A stretch of DNA of 48,030 bases from a virus: the IMG/VR virus record IMGVR_UViG_3300022074_000079, positions 1 to 48,030 of that record; one strand, 5' to 3'. The notes under the pieces are model-generated. The model had not been told where the DNA came from. It searched no databases and worked only from the letters and a program-made list of their open reading frames with translations. How positions within the stretch are numbered: position 1 is the stretch's first letter; each line of letters starts with the position of its first letter. The position numbers and the translations under genes were made by a program. Positions 1 through 11,693 of the stretch are shown here, one piece after another.

Positions 1-300
1 GTACCACACGATTGTGGCAAGCTTGTGGCTTGCTGCTTGAAGCTTGCAGCTTGAAGCTTTGGCCAAGAGCCACGGGGGGCCGGCGCATCTTCTGATTAGC
101 CGTCTCGCTGGTGATCAATCCAGTAATGCTCACGCCCTGTTCTAGTGTTTATACTCACAGTCGCTTGACCCCAGATCCAAAGGGACGCGATTTCAGTCAA
201 CCAACTTTGGATCAGGGCTCAAGGCCCGAGCAGTTATTATCAAGGCTCATGCTCAGGAGCCTGAAAGGACAACCTATGCGTGTATTAGATTATGTTTGGC
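1..300. other. GC-rich structured leader or intergenic segment
   Basis: This stretch is far richer in G+C than the rest (about 38 of 60 bases in 61-120 by hand count). It holds no convincing long gene. It holds several inverted repeats: CCACA/TGTGG at 4-17, a long pair GATCCAAAG (174-182) with CTTTGGATC (205-213) extended by CCC (170-172) and GGG (215-217) after one mismatch, and AGGCTC (243-248) with GAGCCT (257-262). An open frame at 111-314 exists but only its last 13 codons have a ribosome site. It may be a structured RNA, a long 5' leader, or a packaging or replication site. I recognise no known RNA family. Confidence 0.5.
21..62. repeat. Heptamer tandem repeat GCTTGNN
   Basis: Six consecutive 7-base units: GCTTGTG, GCTTGCT, GCTTGAA, GCTTGCA, GCTTGAA and the degenerate GCTTTGG. 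The first five keep GCTTG exactly. The phasing places palindromic AAGCTT at 19-24, 40-45 and 54-59, that is at multiples of 7. Function unknown. Tandem short repeats of this kind can be protein-binding iterons or replication-slippage products. Confidence 0.75.
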
Positions 301-338: not shown

Positions 339-367
339 TTGACAAACTCTTTGTCAAGGGATAATGT
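339..367 (+). promoter_or_regulatory. Candidate sigma70-type promoter with operator-like palindrome
   Basis: TTGACA at 339-344 is followed after 17 bases by the weak -10 TAATGT (362-367); GATAAT hexamers at 360-365 and 370-375 are alternatives. The -35 sits in a perfect inverted repeat TTGACAAA (339-346) / TTTGTCAA (350-357) with loop CTC, a typical operator geometry. It precedes the gene at 402. Confidence 0.45.
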
Positions 368-401
368 GGGATAATTATAAACACTAACAGAAAGGACATA
401 T

Positions 402-1364: not shown

Positions 1365-1398
1365 TTGACAACCTATCCTATTTATTGTAGGATAGGTT
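1365..1398 (+). promoter_or_regulatory. Promoter TTGACA-17-TAGGAT with 11-bp inverted repeat
   Basis: TTGACA (1365-1370), a 17-base spacer and TAGGAT (1388-1393) form a near-consensus host-type promoter. AACCTATCCTA (1370-1380) and TAGGATAGGTT (1388-1398) are perfect reverse complements with a 7-base loop, covering spacer and -10. A bound repressor would block the promoter, or the repeat could form an RNA hairpin if read from upstream. It lies 19 bases before the gene at 1417. Confidence 0.65.
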
Positions 1399-1416: not shown

Positions 1417-1653
1417 ATGTTTTATATAACTTACTTCGCAAAAAAACACGCAAAGTTTATCACACGTAAAGGTCAGTTGGATAAACCAGACGGAACTAAA
1501 GGCAAAAGTTTCGTGTCAAAAAAAGGCGACCAATGTTTAGTCTATTGGGATTTAGACGCAAATGGTTGGAGAAACGCAACGGGACAAAGAAAAATTAAAT
1601 TCCCATCTATTGCTCTTAAAGATTATGCAAAGATTAGAGAGAGGTTAGCATGA
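1417..1653 (+). CDS. Small conserved hypothetical protein, 78 aa
   Basis: A basic protein (many Lys near the N-terminus) with a compact core around YWDLDANGWRNATG (residues about 46-59), which looks like a small beta-sheet fold. I recall similar short proteins in uncultured marine phages but know no function. The ATG follows AGAAAGGACGAA, the same ribosome site as the gene at 402, and the gene sits directly behind the promoter/operator at 1365. Its TGA stop overlaps the ATG of the next tiny ORF (ATGA), suggesting translational coupling. Confidence 0.8.
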   Translation: MFYITYFAKKHAKFITRKGQLDKPDGTKGKSFVSKKGDQCLVYWDLDANGWRNATGQRKIKFPSIALKDYAKIRERLA

Positions 1654-1715
1654 CTTGGATTATAATAATGTCTTTGGCATTTATCTTTGGAATGTGGAGT
1701 ATATACAATGGTTGA
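1650..1715 (+). CDS. Micropeptide, 21 aa, single membrane span
   Basis: The frame starts inside the stop of the previous gene (ATGA overlap at 1650-1653) and encodes MTWIIIMSLAFIFGMWSIYN plus a final Gly, almost wholly hydrophobic, so one membrane helix is likely. Purine-rich GAGAGG lies just upstream. It is the first of three overlapping membrane micropeptide frames (1650, 1708, 1812). Chance cannot be excluded for any one frame, but three in sequence with linked ends are hard to dismiss. Confidence 0.5.
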   Translation: MTWIIIMSLAFIFGMWSIYNG

Positions 1716-1815
1716 ATTATTATCTTTAATATTTATGGAAAGCCCTATCGGGCTTTCCGTTATTCTTATAGCGGGTATCATTGCTATTGGAATAGAGGGG
1801 TATAGGTCATCATGA
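1708..1815 (+). CDS. Micropeptide, 35 aa, membrane protein
   Basis: It overlaps the previous micro-ORF by 8 bases and has GGAG (1696-1699) 8 bases ahead of its ATG. It begins MVELLSLIF and contains the hydrophobic stretch GLSVILIAGIIAIGI (residues about 15-29), a probable membrane helix. Its TGA overlaps the next ATG as ATGA. A perfect 9-bp hairpin, GGAAAGCCC (1737-1745) / GGGCTTTCC (1750-1758) with loop TATC, lies inside the frame and could instead be a transcript-end or pausing element; it is not followed by a clear T run. Confidence 0.45.
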   Translation: MVELLSLIFMESPIGLSVILIAGIIAIGIEGYRSS

Positions 1816-1877
1816 TTGAATTTACTTTTATGATAACAATAATCGTACTTGTCTTAATAAGTGTGAGGGCTAAATGA
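1812..1877 (+). CDS. Micropeptide, 21 aa, single membrane span
   Basis: The sequence MIEFTFMITIIVLVLISVRA ends with Lys: a classic one-helix membrane peptide with a short positive end. The ATG overlaps the previous stop (ATGA) and the stop overlaps the ATG of the zinc-binding protein gene at 1874 (ATGA). GAGGGG lies upstream at 1795-1800. Role unknown; small phage membrane peptides often act in lysis timing, superinfection exclusion or host membrane interference, but nothing here decides. Confidence 0.45.
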   Translation: MIEFTFMITIIVLVLISVRAK

Positions 1878-2170
1878 AATATCCTTGTCAGGGTCCGAAT
1901 TGTCATACACGACCGACCAAGGACCGATTTAATAAATCAACTAAAAGGCTCAAAGGACGTAACGCATATTTTTCCATGGACCATGGTAATGGAACATTTG
2001 CAATCTTTTGTACTACTGGTTGTCAGAATGATTGGATTAATGCTAACATACAAAATATCGTGGCTCAACGACCAATAACATTTAATCGTGAGCGTAAGCT
2101 TAGTGAGCAGACGTATCATTTAACTGAGGGGAACTGGTTAAGGTCAGATGAACATTTGACAAACGATTAA
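1874..2170 (+). CDS. Small zinc-binding hypothetical protein, 98 aa
   Basis: It has paired cysteines suited to metal binding: C5 and C10 with His11 near the start, and CTTGC (about residues 46-50) in the middle. This resembles a treble-clef or TRASH-type zinc finger. The C-terminal half is polar with no other motif. It closes a chain of genes coupled by ATGA overlaps from 1417 on, so it is probably translated with them. DNA, RNA or protein binding are all possible. A new promoter lies over its 3' end (2156-2184). Confidence 0.75.
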   Translation: MKYPCQGPNCHTRPTKDRFNKSTKRLKGRNAYFSMDHGNGTFAIFCTTGCQNDWINANIQNIVAQRPITFNRERKLSEQTYHLTEGNWLRSDEHLTND

Positions 2171-2184
2171 TAGTAGGATAGTAT
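2156..2184 (+). promoter_or_regulatory. Promoter TTGACA-17-TAGTAT, start codon at the predicted transcript start
   Basis: TTGACA (2156-2161), a 17-base spacer and TAGTAT (2179-2184) match the host sigma70 pattern. The next gene's ATG is at 2191, only 6 bases after the -10 box, so transcription would begin at or next to the start codon. A transcript from here would be leaderless or nearly so. AGGA at 2185-2188 is too close to the ATG to be a normal ribosome site. Confidence 0.5.
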
Positions 2185-2190
2185 AGGACT

Positions 2191-2367
2191 ATGATTAAAA
2201 CAACTAACCCATTCTCAGGACAAAGTATTGACCTAACTGAGGACGAACACAAAGTATATATGCAAGTTAAACAAGATGAGATCGACAAGAAGTATGACGC
2301 TATGCAAAAGGGATTAAGTAAGTTTAGTAAGATGAATGCTAAAGCTTATATGGTATTACTAGACTAA
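2191..2367 (+). CDS. Small hypothetical protein, 58 aa
   Basis: The frame begins MIKTTNPFSGQSIDLTEDEH and continues as a charged helix ending AYMVLLD. Short proteins opening with NPFSG or a variant are, as I recall, frequent in marine phages; function unknown. It has no membrane segment. It follows a promoter whose predicted transcript start coincides with this ATG. It ends the early gene cluster; a GC-rich hairpin region follows directly. Confidence 0.7.
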   Translation: MIKTTNPFSGQSIDLTEDEHKVYMQVKQDEIDKKYDAMQKGLSKFSKMNAKAYMVLLD

Positions 2368-2371
2368 CAAC

Positions 2372-2459
2372 CATAGGTTGTGGCGCGCCCTGCGGGCGCG
2401 CCATGGTCCTCGGCCCTTCGGGCCTCGGGGCCCCATATCGGAACTCAATCATAGGTTGT
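2372..2459. promoter_or_regulatory. GC-rich hairpin block flanked by direct repeats
   Basis: Between the early genes and the HNH/terminase operon, CATAGGTTGT occurs at 2372-2381 and 2450-2459. Between the copies lie a perfect 10-bp hairpin TGGCGCGCCC (2381-2390) / GGGCGCGCCA (2394-2403), then GGCCC (2412-2416) / GGGCC (2420-2424), which competes with GGGCC (2420-2424) / GGCCC (2429-2433). Each direct repeat can also form a small hairpin with a nearby CAACC. No T run follows, so a classical terminator is unlikely; a factor-dependent terminator, RNA-processing site or packaging/replication site fits. The rest of 2460-2566 is AT-rich with no visible gene. Confidence 0.6.
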
Positions 2460-2566
2460 ATCGCAACCACCCCCAAGAAACACAAAAAAAGGGGTCCCAC
2501 TACTTTGCTATATATGCCTTGATTTAGAAAGACAGCCTTGATAAAAACGTTTTGATTAATAAAGTT

Positions 2567-3742
2567 ATGAAAGCCAAGAAATATTTATATAAAATAAATG
2601 GTAAGTACGTTTATCCAAATGGTCGTCATAAAAAATATTATACTCCTGTAGAACCAGGACCTTTGTTTTCTTCTGGTAAAAGGAAGAAGATGGTTTTGAT
2701 TAGAGGAAAATATATACATATAGATAAACTAGAATTTTATGGTCCACCTACTGCCCCTCTCTTATTGCCTGCTCCTGCAAAAATATTATTATTACCTAGA
2801 TGGCCTAAAGGAAAACATAGAAAAGAGGTTATGGTCCATACATGTAGATATTGTCTTGTCACTTACAAAACTAAAAAACAAATAAGAAGAAAGCGTAGCT
2901 ATTGTAGTTATGGCTGTGGTGAAAAATATAGACTATATGAAAAAAGATTTTTACCAATGTGGTGGTGGCGTTTCTACTCTGAGAATCAGATTTACCTATG
3001 GGTTCATAGTTATCCCCGTAAATATAAAAAAATGATTTTAAAAACAGGTCCAAAAAATTTTATAAATTTTTTTTTCAAAATTTTTAAACTTTGCAGAAAA
3101 ATAAGAACTTATTTTAAGTACCATAAATTTTATCTTGAAAAAACTAAAGTATGCGAGCATTGGACTTTTTACATTACTAAAAATTCTGATGTCAGAATTT
3201 CAAATAACAGAAGAAATTTTTGTAATGATAAATGTAAAAAAACACATGAGGCAAATCAAGCAGAAGCTTTGAGACAAAGAAATCTTGCAGCGTGGGGCAC
3301 GGAACATAGACCAGATGCTGAGACAAGGAGAATTATTAATAATAGAAAACATGTTGAGTGGGATACAAAAAGAAAAAAAGATGACCCTGCATATAAACTA
3401 ATAAGGAGAATGAGACTTAGAACTAAAAAAGTTTTGGGTGCAAGCTATAGAAGAAGCACACACATGACCGATGTGTATACTCGTTTAGGTGTTGAAAACG
3501 GAAAAGAACTTAAACAGCATTTAGAGTCTCTATGGAAACCTGGAATGTCTTGGGATAACTATGGGGTTTTAGATGGCTGGGTTATTGACCATGTTATTCC
3601 TCTAAAATACTATAAAGATAATTTTGATCTTGCAAATGACTTAGAAATACAAAAGAAAGCTTTTGGAAAGCATAATCTGCAGCCACTTTGGTGGATGGAA
3701 AATGCTAAAAAAAGTGCTAAAATGAATTATGAATTTGAATAA
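2567..3742 (+). CDS. HNH endonuclease with N-terminal zinc-finger-like Cys pairs
   Basis: The C-terminal part carries an HNH/ββα-metal motif: W-VIDHVIPL (about residue 337-345), then KHNLQPLWWMENAKKS (about 368-383), matching the DH...HNLQPL...N pattern. The upstream half has two pairs of Cys clusters (C-R-Y-C near 93 with CSYGC near 113; C near 195 with C-x3-C near 218) that look like zinc fingers, between very basic, aromatic-rich segments. The stop overlaps the terminase start by 14 bases. HNH proteins beside terminases are known partners in DNA packaging for some phages, so a packaging role is plausible; a free-standing homing nuclease is the alternative. Neither the ATG at 2567 nor an in-frame TTG at 2552 has a clear ribosome site. 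Confidence 0.85.
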   Translation: MKAKKYLYKINGKYVYPNGRHKKYYTPVEPGPLFSSGKRKKMVLIRGKYIHIDKLEFYGPPTAPLLLPAPAKILLLPRWPKGKHRKEVMVHTCRYCLVTYKTKKQIRRKRSYCSYGCGEKYRLYEKRFLPMWWWRFYSENQIYLWVHSYPRKYKKMILKTGPKNFINFFFKIFKLCRKIRTYFKYHKFYLEKTKVCEHWTFYITKNSDVRISNNRRNFCNDKCKKTHEANQAEALRQRNLAAWGTEHRPDAETRRIINNRKHVEWDTKRKKDDPAYKLIRRMRLRTKKVLGASYRRSTHMTDVYTRLGVENGKELKQHLESLWKPGMSWDNYGVLDGWVIDHVIPLKYYKDNFDLANDLEIQKKAFGKHNLQPLWWMENAKKSAKMNYEFE

Positions 3743-11121: not shown

Positions 11122-11304
11122 ATGGAAAAATTAGATAAAATTAAACCAGTTACAGTGCAAGACCAAGAAGTTGAAATAGATCCTAGATCTAAAACAACGG
11201 CTGACGCTGCATTTAACTATATTGGTACAGGCGGACCTGAACTTGAAGTACAAGGTCAAGGCGCTGTTAGACCTGACAAGAAAAGAAAATCAAAGGCGTA
11301 CTAA
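11122..11304 (+). CDS. Small hypothetical protein, 60 aa
   Basis: A polar protein with an acidic front, TGGPE in the middle and a basic C-terminus (PDKKRKSKAY). It has a strong ribosome site (AAAAAAGGAG before the ATG) and its stop shares a base with the ATG of the holin-like gene (TAATG). Function unknown; no motif recognised. Confidence 0.8.
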   Translation: MEKLDKIKPVTVQDQEVEIDPRSKTTADAAFNYIGTGGPELEVQGQGAVRPDKKRKSKAY

Positions 11305-11693
11305 TGGCTTGGTTCAGTTTAGCAAAAATAGCTTTGCAGGCTGGTTCAAAAATTTATTCGAACCGCCAAAAGACAAAGATGGCTATGTCTGATGCACAAT
11401 TGATGCATGCAGAGAAAATGGCTCGGGGTGAAGAGCAATACCAGGGCAAATTGCTAGAAGCTAGGCAAAACGACTATAAGGACGAATTTGTACTCGTGAT
11501 TATATCGGCGCCCATCATTGTGTTAATGTGGGCAGTCATGTCAGATGACCCTGCAGCGATGGAAAAGGTAAAATTATTCTTTGAATACTTTCAATCTCTA
11601 CCATCTTGGTTTACTAACTTATGGATACTTGTAGTTGCCTCAATTTTTGGTATAAAGGGTACACAAGTATTTAGAAACGGAGGCAAAAAATAA
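11304..11693 (+). CDS. Holin-like membrane protein, 129 aa
   Basis: The first 60 residues form a charged amphipathic helix. Two membrane helices follow: FVLVIISAPIIVLMWAVM (62-79) and about 103-119 (TNLWILVVASIFGIKG), then a short tail RNGGKK. This resembles the 3TM-type holin family of gene transfer agents and many marine phages, which permeabilises the inner membrane for lysis. It is embedded between portal and capsid genes rather than beside an endolysin, and no endolysin is recognised, so a structural membrane protein remains possible. TAATG overlaps tie it to both neighbours. Confidence 0.6.
   Translation: MAWFSLAKIALQAGSKIYSNRQKTKMAMSDAQLMHAEKMARGEEQYQGKLLEARQNDYKDEFVLVIISAPIIVLMWAVMSDDPAAMEKVKLFFEYFQSLPSWFTNLWILVVASIFGIKGTQVFRNGGKK

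What the first reader, a model, noticed from the sequence alone, without database searches (positions are those of the whole stretch)
1650..1877. Chain of three overlapping membrane micropeptide genes
ORFs of 21, 35 and 21 residues are linked to each other and to flanking genes by overlaps of 4, 8, 4 and 4 bases (mostly ATGA). Each encodes a hydrophobic helix and each has an upstream purine-rich site. Standard gene finders omit frames this short. Possible roles are membrane stress, superinfection exclusion or lysis control.
Basis: partly seen in the sequence, partly recalled or inferred. Interest (0 to 1): 0.6.

Follow-up and report, generated by a model that had tools for sequence, protein, structure and literature searches.

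The report
Shuffled tiny membrane genes in pelagiphages
In ocean viruses related to phages of the SAR11 bacterium Pelagibacter, a fixed gap between two conserved genes carries an ever-changing set of zero to three tiny, head-to-tail overlapping genes for membrane peptides, apparently swapped whole between viruses like interchangeable modules.

Summary
ORFs of 21, 35 and 21 codons (A, B, C) lie between a 78-aa gene (p78) and a 98-aa gene (p98), with overlaps of 4, 8, 4 and 4 nt. In uncultivated relatives the same slot holds zero to three micro-ORFs from about 26 clusters. It is empty in 42 of 178 distinct slots. There are about 35 arrangements, and order can be permuted (A-B-C here, C-B-A in L066). 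Neighbours join almost always by start/stop overlap, and empty sites are clean at ATGA. Of 136 filled gaps, 133 are tiled by overlapping ATG ORFs, against 7.7 expected. The coding frame is the most hydrophobic in 94%. A sigma70-like promoter before p78 is conserved in 132 of 167. B carries an 11-pair RNA hairpin inside its frame, kept at synonymous sites; perfect stems of 8 bp or more are about 14-fold enriched in modules. Most likely this is an early, host-RNAP-driven operon whose coupled micro-membrane proteins are exchangeable accessory effectors, for superinfection exclusion or counter-defence. The architecture is well supported, the function is inferred, and lysis is unlikely. It is a new variant of a known kind.

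The parts
1365..1393 (+). sigma70-type promoter TTGACA-N17-TAGGAT upstream of p78
   Evidence: strong consensus match here; an equivalent promoter found in 132 of 167 relatives upstream of p78
1370..1398 (.). 11-bp inverted repeat AACCTATCCTA..TAGGATAGGTT covering the promoter spacer and -10; operator-like
   Evidence: one of six perfect stems of at least 9 bp in the 48 kb window; operator role is inference
1417..1653 (+). p78, 78 aa, conserved phage gene, predicted small five-stranded beta barrel, weak WYL_2 (Sm-like) match
   Evidence: 281 relatives in viral contigs; no relative found in the prokaryote genome collection; Pfam PF10902 E 5e-5, below the gathering cut-off
1650..1715 (+). micro-ORF A, 21 aa, one hydrophobic helix; overlaps p78 by ATGA
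   Evidence: six loci, dN/dS 0.26, position permuted in L066
1708..1815 (+). micro-ORF B, 35 aa, ESPxGLSII core and one hydrophobic helix; overlaps A by 8 nt
   Evidence: 26 distinct full-length copies, all open
1735..1760 (+). RNA hairpin inside B (perfect 9-bp stem at 1737-1758, 11 pairs counting one G-U; loop of 4), modest T-rich tail
   Evidence: all 11 pairs kept in 26 of 26 distinct 108-nt copies with compensation at the outer pair 30-51; MFE z about -4 against synonymous recoding
1812..1877 (+). micro-ORF C, 21 aa, one hydrophobic helix; overlaps B by ATGA and p98 by ATGA
   Evidence: 8 distinct sequences in several different neighbour contexts, always intact
1874..2170 (+). p98, 98 aa, conserved Cys/His protein (C5, C10-H11, C46, C50 invariant), zinc-finger-like by pattern only
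   Evidence: AlphaFold model poor (pLDDT 53.9)
2156..2184 (+). second sigma70-type promoter TTGACA-N17-TAGTAT before the next gene
2191..2367 (+). 58-aa conserved gene that follows p98; E-type modules sit before its homologues in some relatives

Best explanation
This is a hypervariable accessory slot inside an operon transcribed by host sigma70 RNA polymerase, probably early. The micro-ORFs are real genes for small membrane proteins (20-69 aa for the clearly hydrophobic families). They are translated by termination-reinitiation coupling from p78 and from each other through ATGA-type overlaps. Because each module begins at its own start codon and ends at its own stop codon, often within a 4-nt ATGA, whole modules can be added, lost, replaced or reordered by recombination without damaging neighbours. 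Shown: the chain, its overlaps, the module turnover, clean empty sites and promoter conservation. Inferred: translation, membrane insertion, early timing, and function. The most likely function is that of exchangeable early accessory effectors at the host inner membrane, first of all superinfection exclusion or counter-defence. The hairpin within B, and similar ones in other modules, is a separate conserved RNA-level feature, perhaps an attenuator, processing or stability element.
For: Slot and modules: 178 distinct p78-to-p98 slots with 42 empty, 101 with one, 28 with two and 6 with three micro-ORFs; junctions -4 (166), -1 (89), -8 (41), -10 to -14 (40), few without overlap. Tiling 133/136 against 7.7 expected, coding frame most hydrophobic in 94% of 165 distinct modules. 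SD-like sites at 143 of 151 module starts against 91 expected. Purifying selection in most families: A 0.26, E 0.36, I 0.36, J 0.23, K 0.42, G 0.49. Turnover with similar flanks: L004 empty against L015 A-B-C at 94.1% and 91.5% flank identity; L106 B-D against L109 E at 96.2% and 87.2%; clean ATGA joints. Promoter conserved 132/167; the cultured relative HTVC027P encodes no RNA polymerase and relies on the host's (PMC12753301). Modules also occur at other joints of the same operon. Model for function: phage genes in highly variable regions are a known source of counter-defence and exclusion proteins, Imm and Cor among them (PMC12373910); Imm is a membrane protein of a lytic phage (PMC6832632).
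Against: No expression, translation or phenotype data exist for any module. None was found in 50,697 cultured phage records (B, E and G tested). No module has a convincing family match. C shows only weak purifying selection. Timing of the p78 and p98 homologues in the HTVC027P transcriptome is in a table I could not read. Empty slots show that the modules are dispensable, which fits accessory effectors but does not identify their task. Small sequence counts and relatedness limit the statistics.
Confidence: 0.5

Rival explanations
1. The modules are regulators of host inner-membrane complexes (transporters, respiratory or secretion complexes), in the manner of bacterial small membrane proteins such as AcrZ, MgtS, KdpF or CydX, retuning the host for phage production rather than excluding other phages.
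For: Size, single hydrophobic helix and frequent basic C-terminus fit bitopic small regulators (the comparison is from general knowledge). Whole-module turnover could follow host diversity.
Against: No sequence match to such families. Extreme turnover and the many empty slots are easier to explain by arms-race selection than by a constant host target.
Confidence: 0.22
2. The primary element is RNA: a hairpin or leader between p78 and p98 that attenuates transcription or sets mRNA processing, with the peptides being secondary.
For: B keeps its stem at synonymous sites in 26 of 26 copies; perfect stems of at least 8 bp in 54 of 165 modules against 3.7 expected after synonymous recoding, 2.97 per kb in modules against 0.26-0.35 per kb in p78 and p98; the B hairpin scores as a terminator-like site.
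Against: 80 of 136 filled slots have no such stem; A, C, D, F and several other families are unstructured; the frames, start/stop overlaps, SD sites and hydropathy are conserved regardless of hairpins.
Confidence: 0.13
3. The modules are lysis proteins: micro-holins, antiholins or lysis timers.
For: Small hydrophobic proteins; exchange of lysis genes is common in phages (general knowledge).
Against: Host-type promoter conserved before p78; slot empty in about a quarter of relatives, which an essential lysis gene would not be unless duplicated; a separate holin-like membrane ORF lies among the virion genes at 11304-11693.
Confidence: 0.07
4. The chain is a chance by-product of AT-rich sequence: hydrophobic short ORFs without function.
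For: AT-rich DNA gives hydrophobic codons easily; the window alone reaches about 1% in shuffles; C has weak synonymous bias.
Against: 133/136 tiled against 7.7 expected; module boundaries coincide with start and stop codons in many contexts; dN/dS well below 1 in most families.
Confidence: 0.02

Closest known systems
Hypervariable accessory-gene regions of lytic phages (source of counter-defence and exclusion genes, such as the accessory genes screened in PMC12373910; hyperplastic regions of T4-like phages)
   Same: A fixed position between conserved genes, dispensable content, high turnover among close relatives, small genes of unknown function.
   Different: Content here is almost wholly membrane micro-ORFs, mostly 20-55 aa, joined by start/stop overlaps inside one operon, with permuted order and scarless ATGA joints.
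Superinfection-exclusion membrane proteins of phages (T4 Imm; lambdoid Cor)
   Same: Small, membrane-associated or surface-acting, accessory, in some cases from lytic phages.
   Different: No sequence relation detected; most modules are far smaller; no exclusion phenotype tested.
Small bitopic membrane regulators of bacteria (AcrZ, MgtS, KdpF, CydX; from general knowledge)
   Same: Length and single hydrophobic helix, often with charged ends.
   Different: Phage-encoded, exchanged as modules in a chain; no family match.
Pelagibacter phages HTVC027P and HTVC023P
   Same: HTVC027P shares the terminase region (72% DNA identity in aligned pieces) and has p78 and p98 homologues adjacent.
   Different: In HTVC027P the slot is empty; the modules tested were not found in any cultured phage record.

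Membership tests
Hypervariable phage accessory locus | Content differs between close relatives while both flanking genes are conserved | tested here: met
   for example L004 (empty) and L015 (A-B-C), flanks 94.1% and 91.5% identical
Hypervariable phage accessory locus | Content dispensable (empty sites exist) | tested here: met
   42 of 178 distinct slots empty, clean ATGA joint in L004 and L009
Hypervariable phage accessory locus | Genes act on host or on competing phages | not testable with these tools
   no phenotype data
Superinfection-exclusion membrane protein (T4 Imm, Cor type) | Sequence or profile match to a known member | tested here: not met
   no module matches a Pfam, PHROGs or PADLOC family convincingly
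Superinfection-exclusion membrane protein (T4 Imm, Cor type) | Membrane-located | tested here: inconclusive
   94% of 165 modules have a TM-like hydropathy peak; location itself not shown
Superinfection-exclusion membrane protein (T4 Imm, Cor type) | Early expression in infection | tested here: inconclusive
   conserved sigma70-like promoter; transcription timing not measured
Superinfection-exclusion membrane protein (T4 Imm, Cor type) | Blocks DNA entry of a second phage | not testable with these tools
   needs an experiment
WYL_2 / Sm-like (p78) | Profile match above the curated cut-off | tested here: not met
   23.9 bits against 26.7, E 5e-5
WYL_2 / Sm-like (p78) | Small beta-barrel fold | tested here: inconclusive
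   five strands, pLDDT 79.5; no solved structure matched, one weak viral match
Intrinsic terminator or attenuator (hairpin in B) | GC-rich stem followed at once by a T-run | tested here: inconclusive
   scored as terminator-like, but two such sites are found where 2.4 are expected by chance; tail only modestly T-rich

The most novel reading that the evidence does not exclude
A combinatorial micro-gene system: phages assemble a chain from a shared pool of membrane micropeptide modules, using the ATGA start/stop overlap (and conserved hairpin cores such as that in B) as recurrent recombination joints, so that each phage carries its own combination of coupled peptides that may act together at the host membrane.
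Probability: 0.15. Interest if true: 0.8.

Novelty: new variant of a known kind. Interest (0 to 1): 0.6.

Why it matters
Phages of SAR11 are among the most abundant viruses in the sea, and all early genes of the closest cultured relative have unknown function (PMC12753301). The slot gives a compact, testable set of about 26 clusters of mostly membrane micropeptides under rapid exchange, below the size that gene finders and protein-family libraries usually hold. It is also a clear natural case of whole-gene modules joined by start/stop overlaps with scarless empty sites, useful for studying how overlaps guide recombination and coupled translation, and it raises the question of why many modules also conserve an RNA hairpin inside their frame.

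Tried and rejected
Scans of viral contigs with the 35-aa B protein (too short) and with the p98 profile (no conserved stretch) failed; B was reached by a DNA pattern instead, which requires the stem and so biases six of the B copies towards having it. Prokaryote genomes gave no p78 relative. The 50,697 phage records gave no match to B, E or G. Rfam had no family for the window or two relatives. Fold comparison of p78 gave no usable solved relative, and p98 did not model well. Literature searches for such a slot returned nothing; one review on phage small proteins was read for context; the large survey of small phage genes it cites was not held. One parser run failed for a wrong program option and was repeated. 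Chance ORFs, lysis genes and a purely RNA element were considered and are listed as rivals. An early pN/pS of 0.83 for E came from unaligned sequences and was replaced by a dN/dS of 0.36 after alignment.

Full report
What is there. The window is a 48,030-base virus record. Its closest named relatives are Pelagibacter phages HTVC027P and HTVC023P and the uncultured phage 023Pt_psg01, by DNA similarity in the terminase region. Each start has a purine-rich site upstream.

Is it more than chance? From the window alone, an end-to-end tiling by overlapping ATG ORFs appears in about 1% of dinucleotide shuffles. Relatives settle it. I fetched loci by p78 and p98 relatives and by the B hairpin pattern and parsed the slot between p78 and p98. 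Of 178 distinct slots, 42 are empty, 101 hold one micro-ORF, 28 two and 6 three; the remaining one did not parse. Junctions are nearly all overlaps: -4 in 166, -1 in 89, -8 in 41, -10 to -14 in 40. Of 136 gaps of at least 50 nt, 133 are tiled by overlapping ATG ORFs against 7.7 expected. The coding frame has the highest hydropathy of the three forward frames in 94% of 165 distinct modules, and 94% have a TM-like peak. SD-like sites precede 143 of 151 module starts against about 91 expected. These slots are related, so the counts are not independent trials, but the size of the effect leaves little doubt that the frames are genes.

Modules and turnover. Clustering gives 26 clusters, half of them singletons, and about 35 arrangements. 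The window and L001 carry A-B-C; L066 carries C-B-A; L002 carries B-D-C; L026 carries C-E-F. Close pairs differ by whole modules while both flanks stay similar: L004 (empty) and L015 (A-B-C) at 94.1% and 91.5%; L106 (B-D) and L109 (E) at 96.2% and 87.2%. Empty sites are clean: L009 reads GGTTAGCATGAAATAT where the window reads GGTTAGCATGACTTGG...GCTAAATGAAATAT. C is identical in nucleotide sequence in the window and L002, although their B modules differ. B and C both begin ATGATTGAA in many copies, so short shared starts may help recombination; that is inference. B copies also combine different N- and C-terminal halves on either side of the conserved ESPxGLSII core, consistent with recombination there, again inference. 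Modules are not confined to one joint: E-type modules sit between p98 and the 58-aa gene in L286, L012 and L063, and a C-B pair follows a diverged p78-like gene in L308, L293, L314, L279 and L309.

Selection. dN/dS is 0.26 for A, 0.36 for E and I, 0.23 for J, 0.42 for K, 0.49 for G and 0.54 for the cluster that merges B, F and H (some families are near saturation). C is weak: 0.63 as pN/pS with 8 sequences.

The hairpin. B contains a stem-loop within its coding frame (1735-1760). In 26 distinct full-length copies all 11 pairs are kept; the pair 30-51 is G-C in 14, A-T in 9 and G-T in 3; the stem codons AGC, GGG and CTT never change although the loop codon has nine forms. Six of the copies were found by a pattern that requires the stem, and one longer copy (L124) lacks it. 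Folding energy is about 4 sd below synonymous recodings for B, 3.4 for G, 2.0 for H, 1.7 for E and near zero or above for A, C, D and F. Perfect stems of at least 8 bp occur in 54 of 165 modules against 3.7 expected. Their density is 2.97 per kb in modules and 0.26-0.35 per kb in p78 and p98. So an RNA-level constraint exists in some module families, not all; 80 of 136 filled slots have no such stem. Its role is not known. Attenuation, processing or stability are candidates.

Expression. TTGACA-N17-TAGGAT lies just upstream of p78, and a comparable promoter precedes p78 in 132 of 167 relatives. A perfect 11-bp inverted repeat covers its spacer and -10, operator-like by position. HTVC027P has no RNA polymerase gene and relies on the host's; all of its early genes have unknown function (PMC12753301). 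Early expression of this operon is therefore likely but not shown: the per-gene table was not readable here.

Flanking proteins. p78 has 281 relatives in viral contigs and none found in prokaryote genomes. It matches Pfam WYL_2 below the cut-off and models as a five-stranded small barrel (pLDDT 79.5) without a convincing solved relative. p98 has invariant C5, C10, H11, C46 and C50 and looks zinc-binding, but its model is poor.

How it most likely works. Host RNA polymerase transcribes the operon; ribosomes finishing p78 re-initiate at the overlapping start of the first module, and so on to p98. Each module makes a small inner-membrane protein. Because joints are start/stop overlaps, modules can be exchanged whole. 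Rapid turnover, dispensability and membrane character together point to accessory effectors in phage-phage or phage-host conflict, superinfection exclusion first, counter-defence second. Steps shown: sequence architecture, conservation, turnover. Steps inferred: translation, membrane insertion, timing, function.

Comparison with what is known. It works like a hypervariable accessory locus and meets that definition where tested. It is not filed as a superinfection-exclusion family because sequence membership was tested and not met and no phenotype is known; that lowers the claim of membership, not the claim that it may work that way. I found no description of such a chain in the library, and the modules tested were not found in cultured phages or convincingly in family libraries. 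The papers searched are open-access only, so prior description elsewhere is possible.

Verdict. New variant of a known kind; interest 0.6.

Noticed in passing
window 164-223; L017 about 1773-2200; L024 about 1221-1411: A repeated stem-loop-like element with arms CTTGAGCCCTGATC and GATCTGGGGTCAAG and a variable middle; several copies follow p78 or the modules in relatives where no p98 was found. No Rfam match.
   Followed up: partly
window 18-62; L017 3084-3183; L024 1649-1721 and 2480-2586: Degenerate heptamer arrays of the form GCTTGNN (CAAGCNN on the other strand) in apparently non-coding stretches.
   Followed up: no
window 2381-2430: Two adjacent G+C-rich palindromes in an otherwise AT-rich stretch, between the 58-aa gene and the next ORF.
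   Followed up: no
window 2552-3742: ORF between the 58-aa gene and the large terminase with HNH-like C-terminal motifs and Cys pairs; only weak family matches. HTVC027P has no ORF of that size there.
   Followed up: no
window 351-390 and relatives' p78 promoters: GGGATAAT or GGGATTATC motifs recur in promoter spacers of this operon and near the start of the 319-aa gene, possibly a shared operator.
   Followed up: no
L020 1831-1992 (module G): Two-helix module with weak matches to a cyanobacterial TRADD-associated TM domain (E 0.003) and to a SLATT-type model (E 0.008), both too weak to rely on.
   Followed up: no
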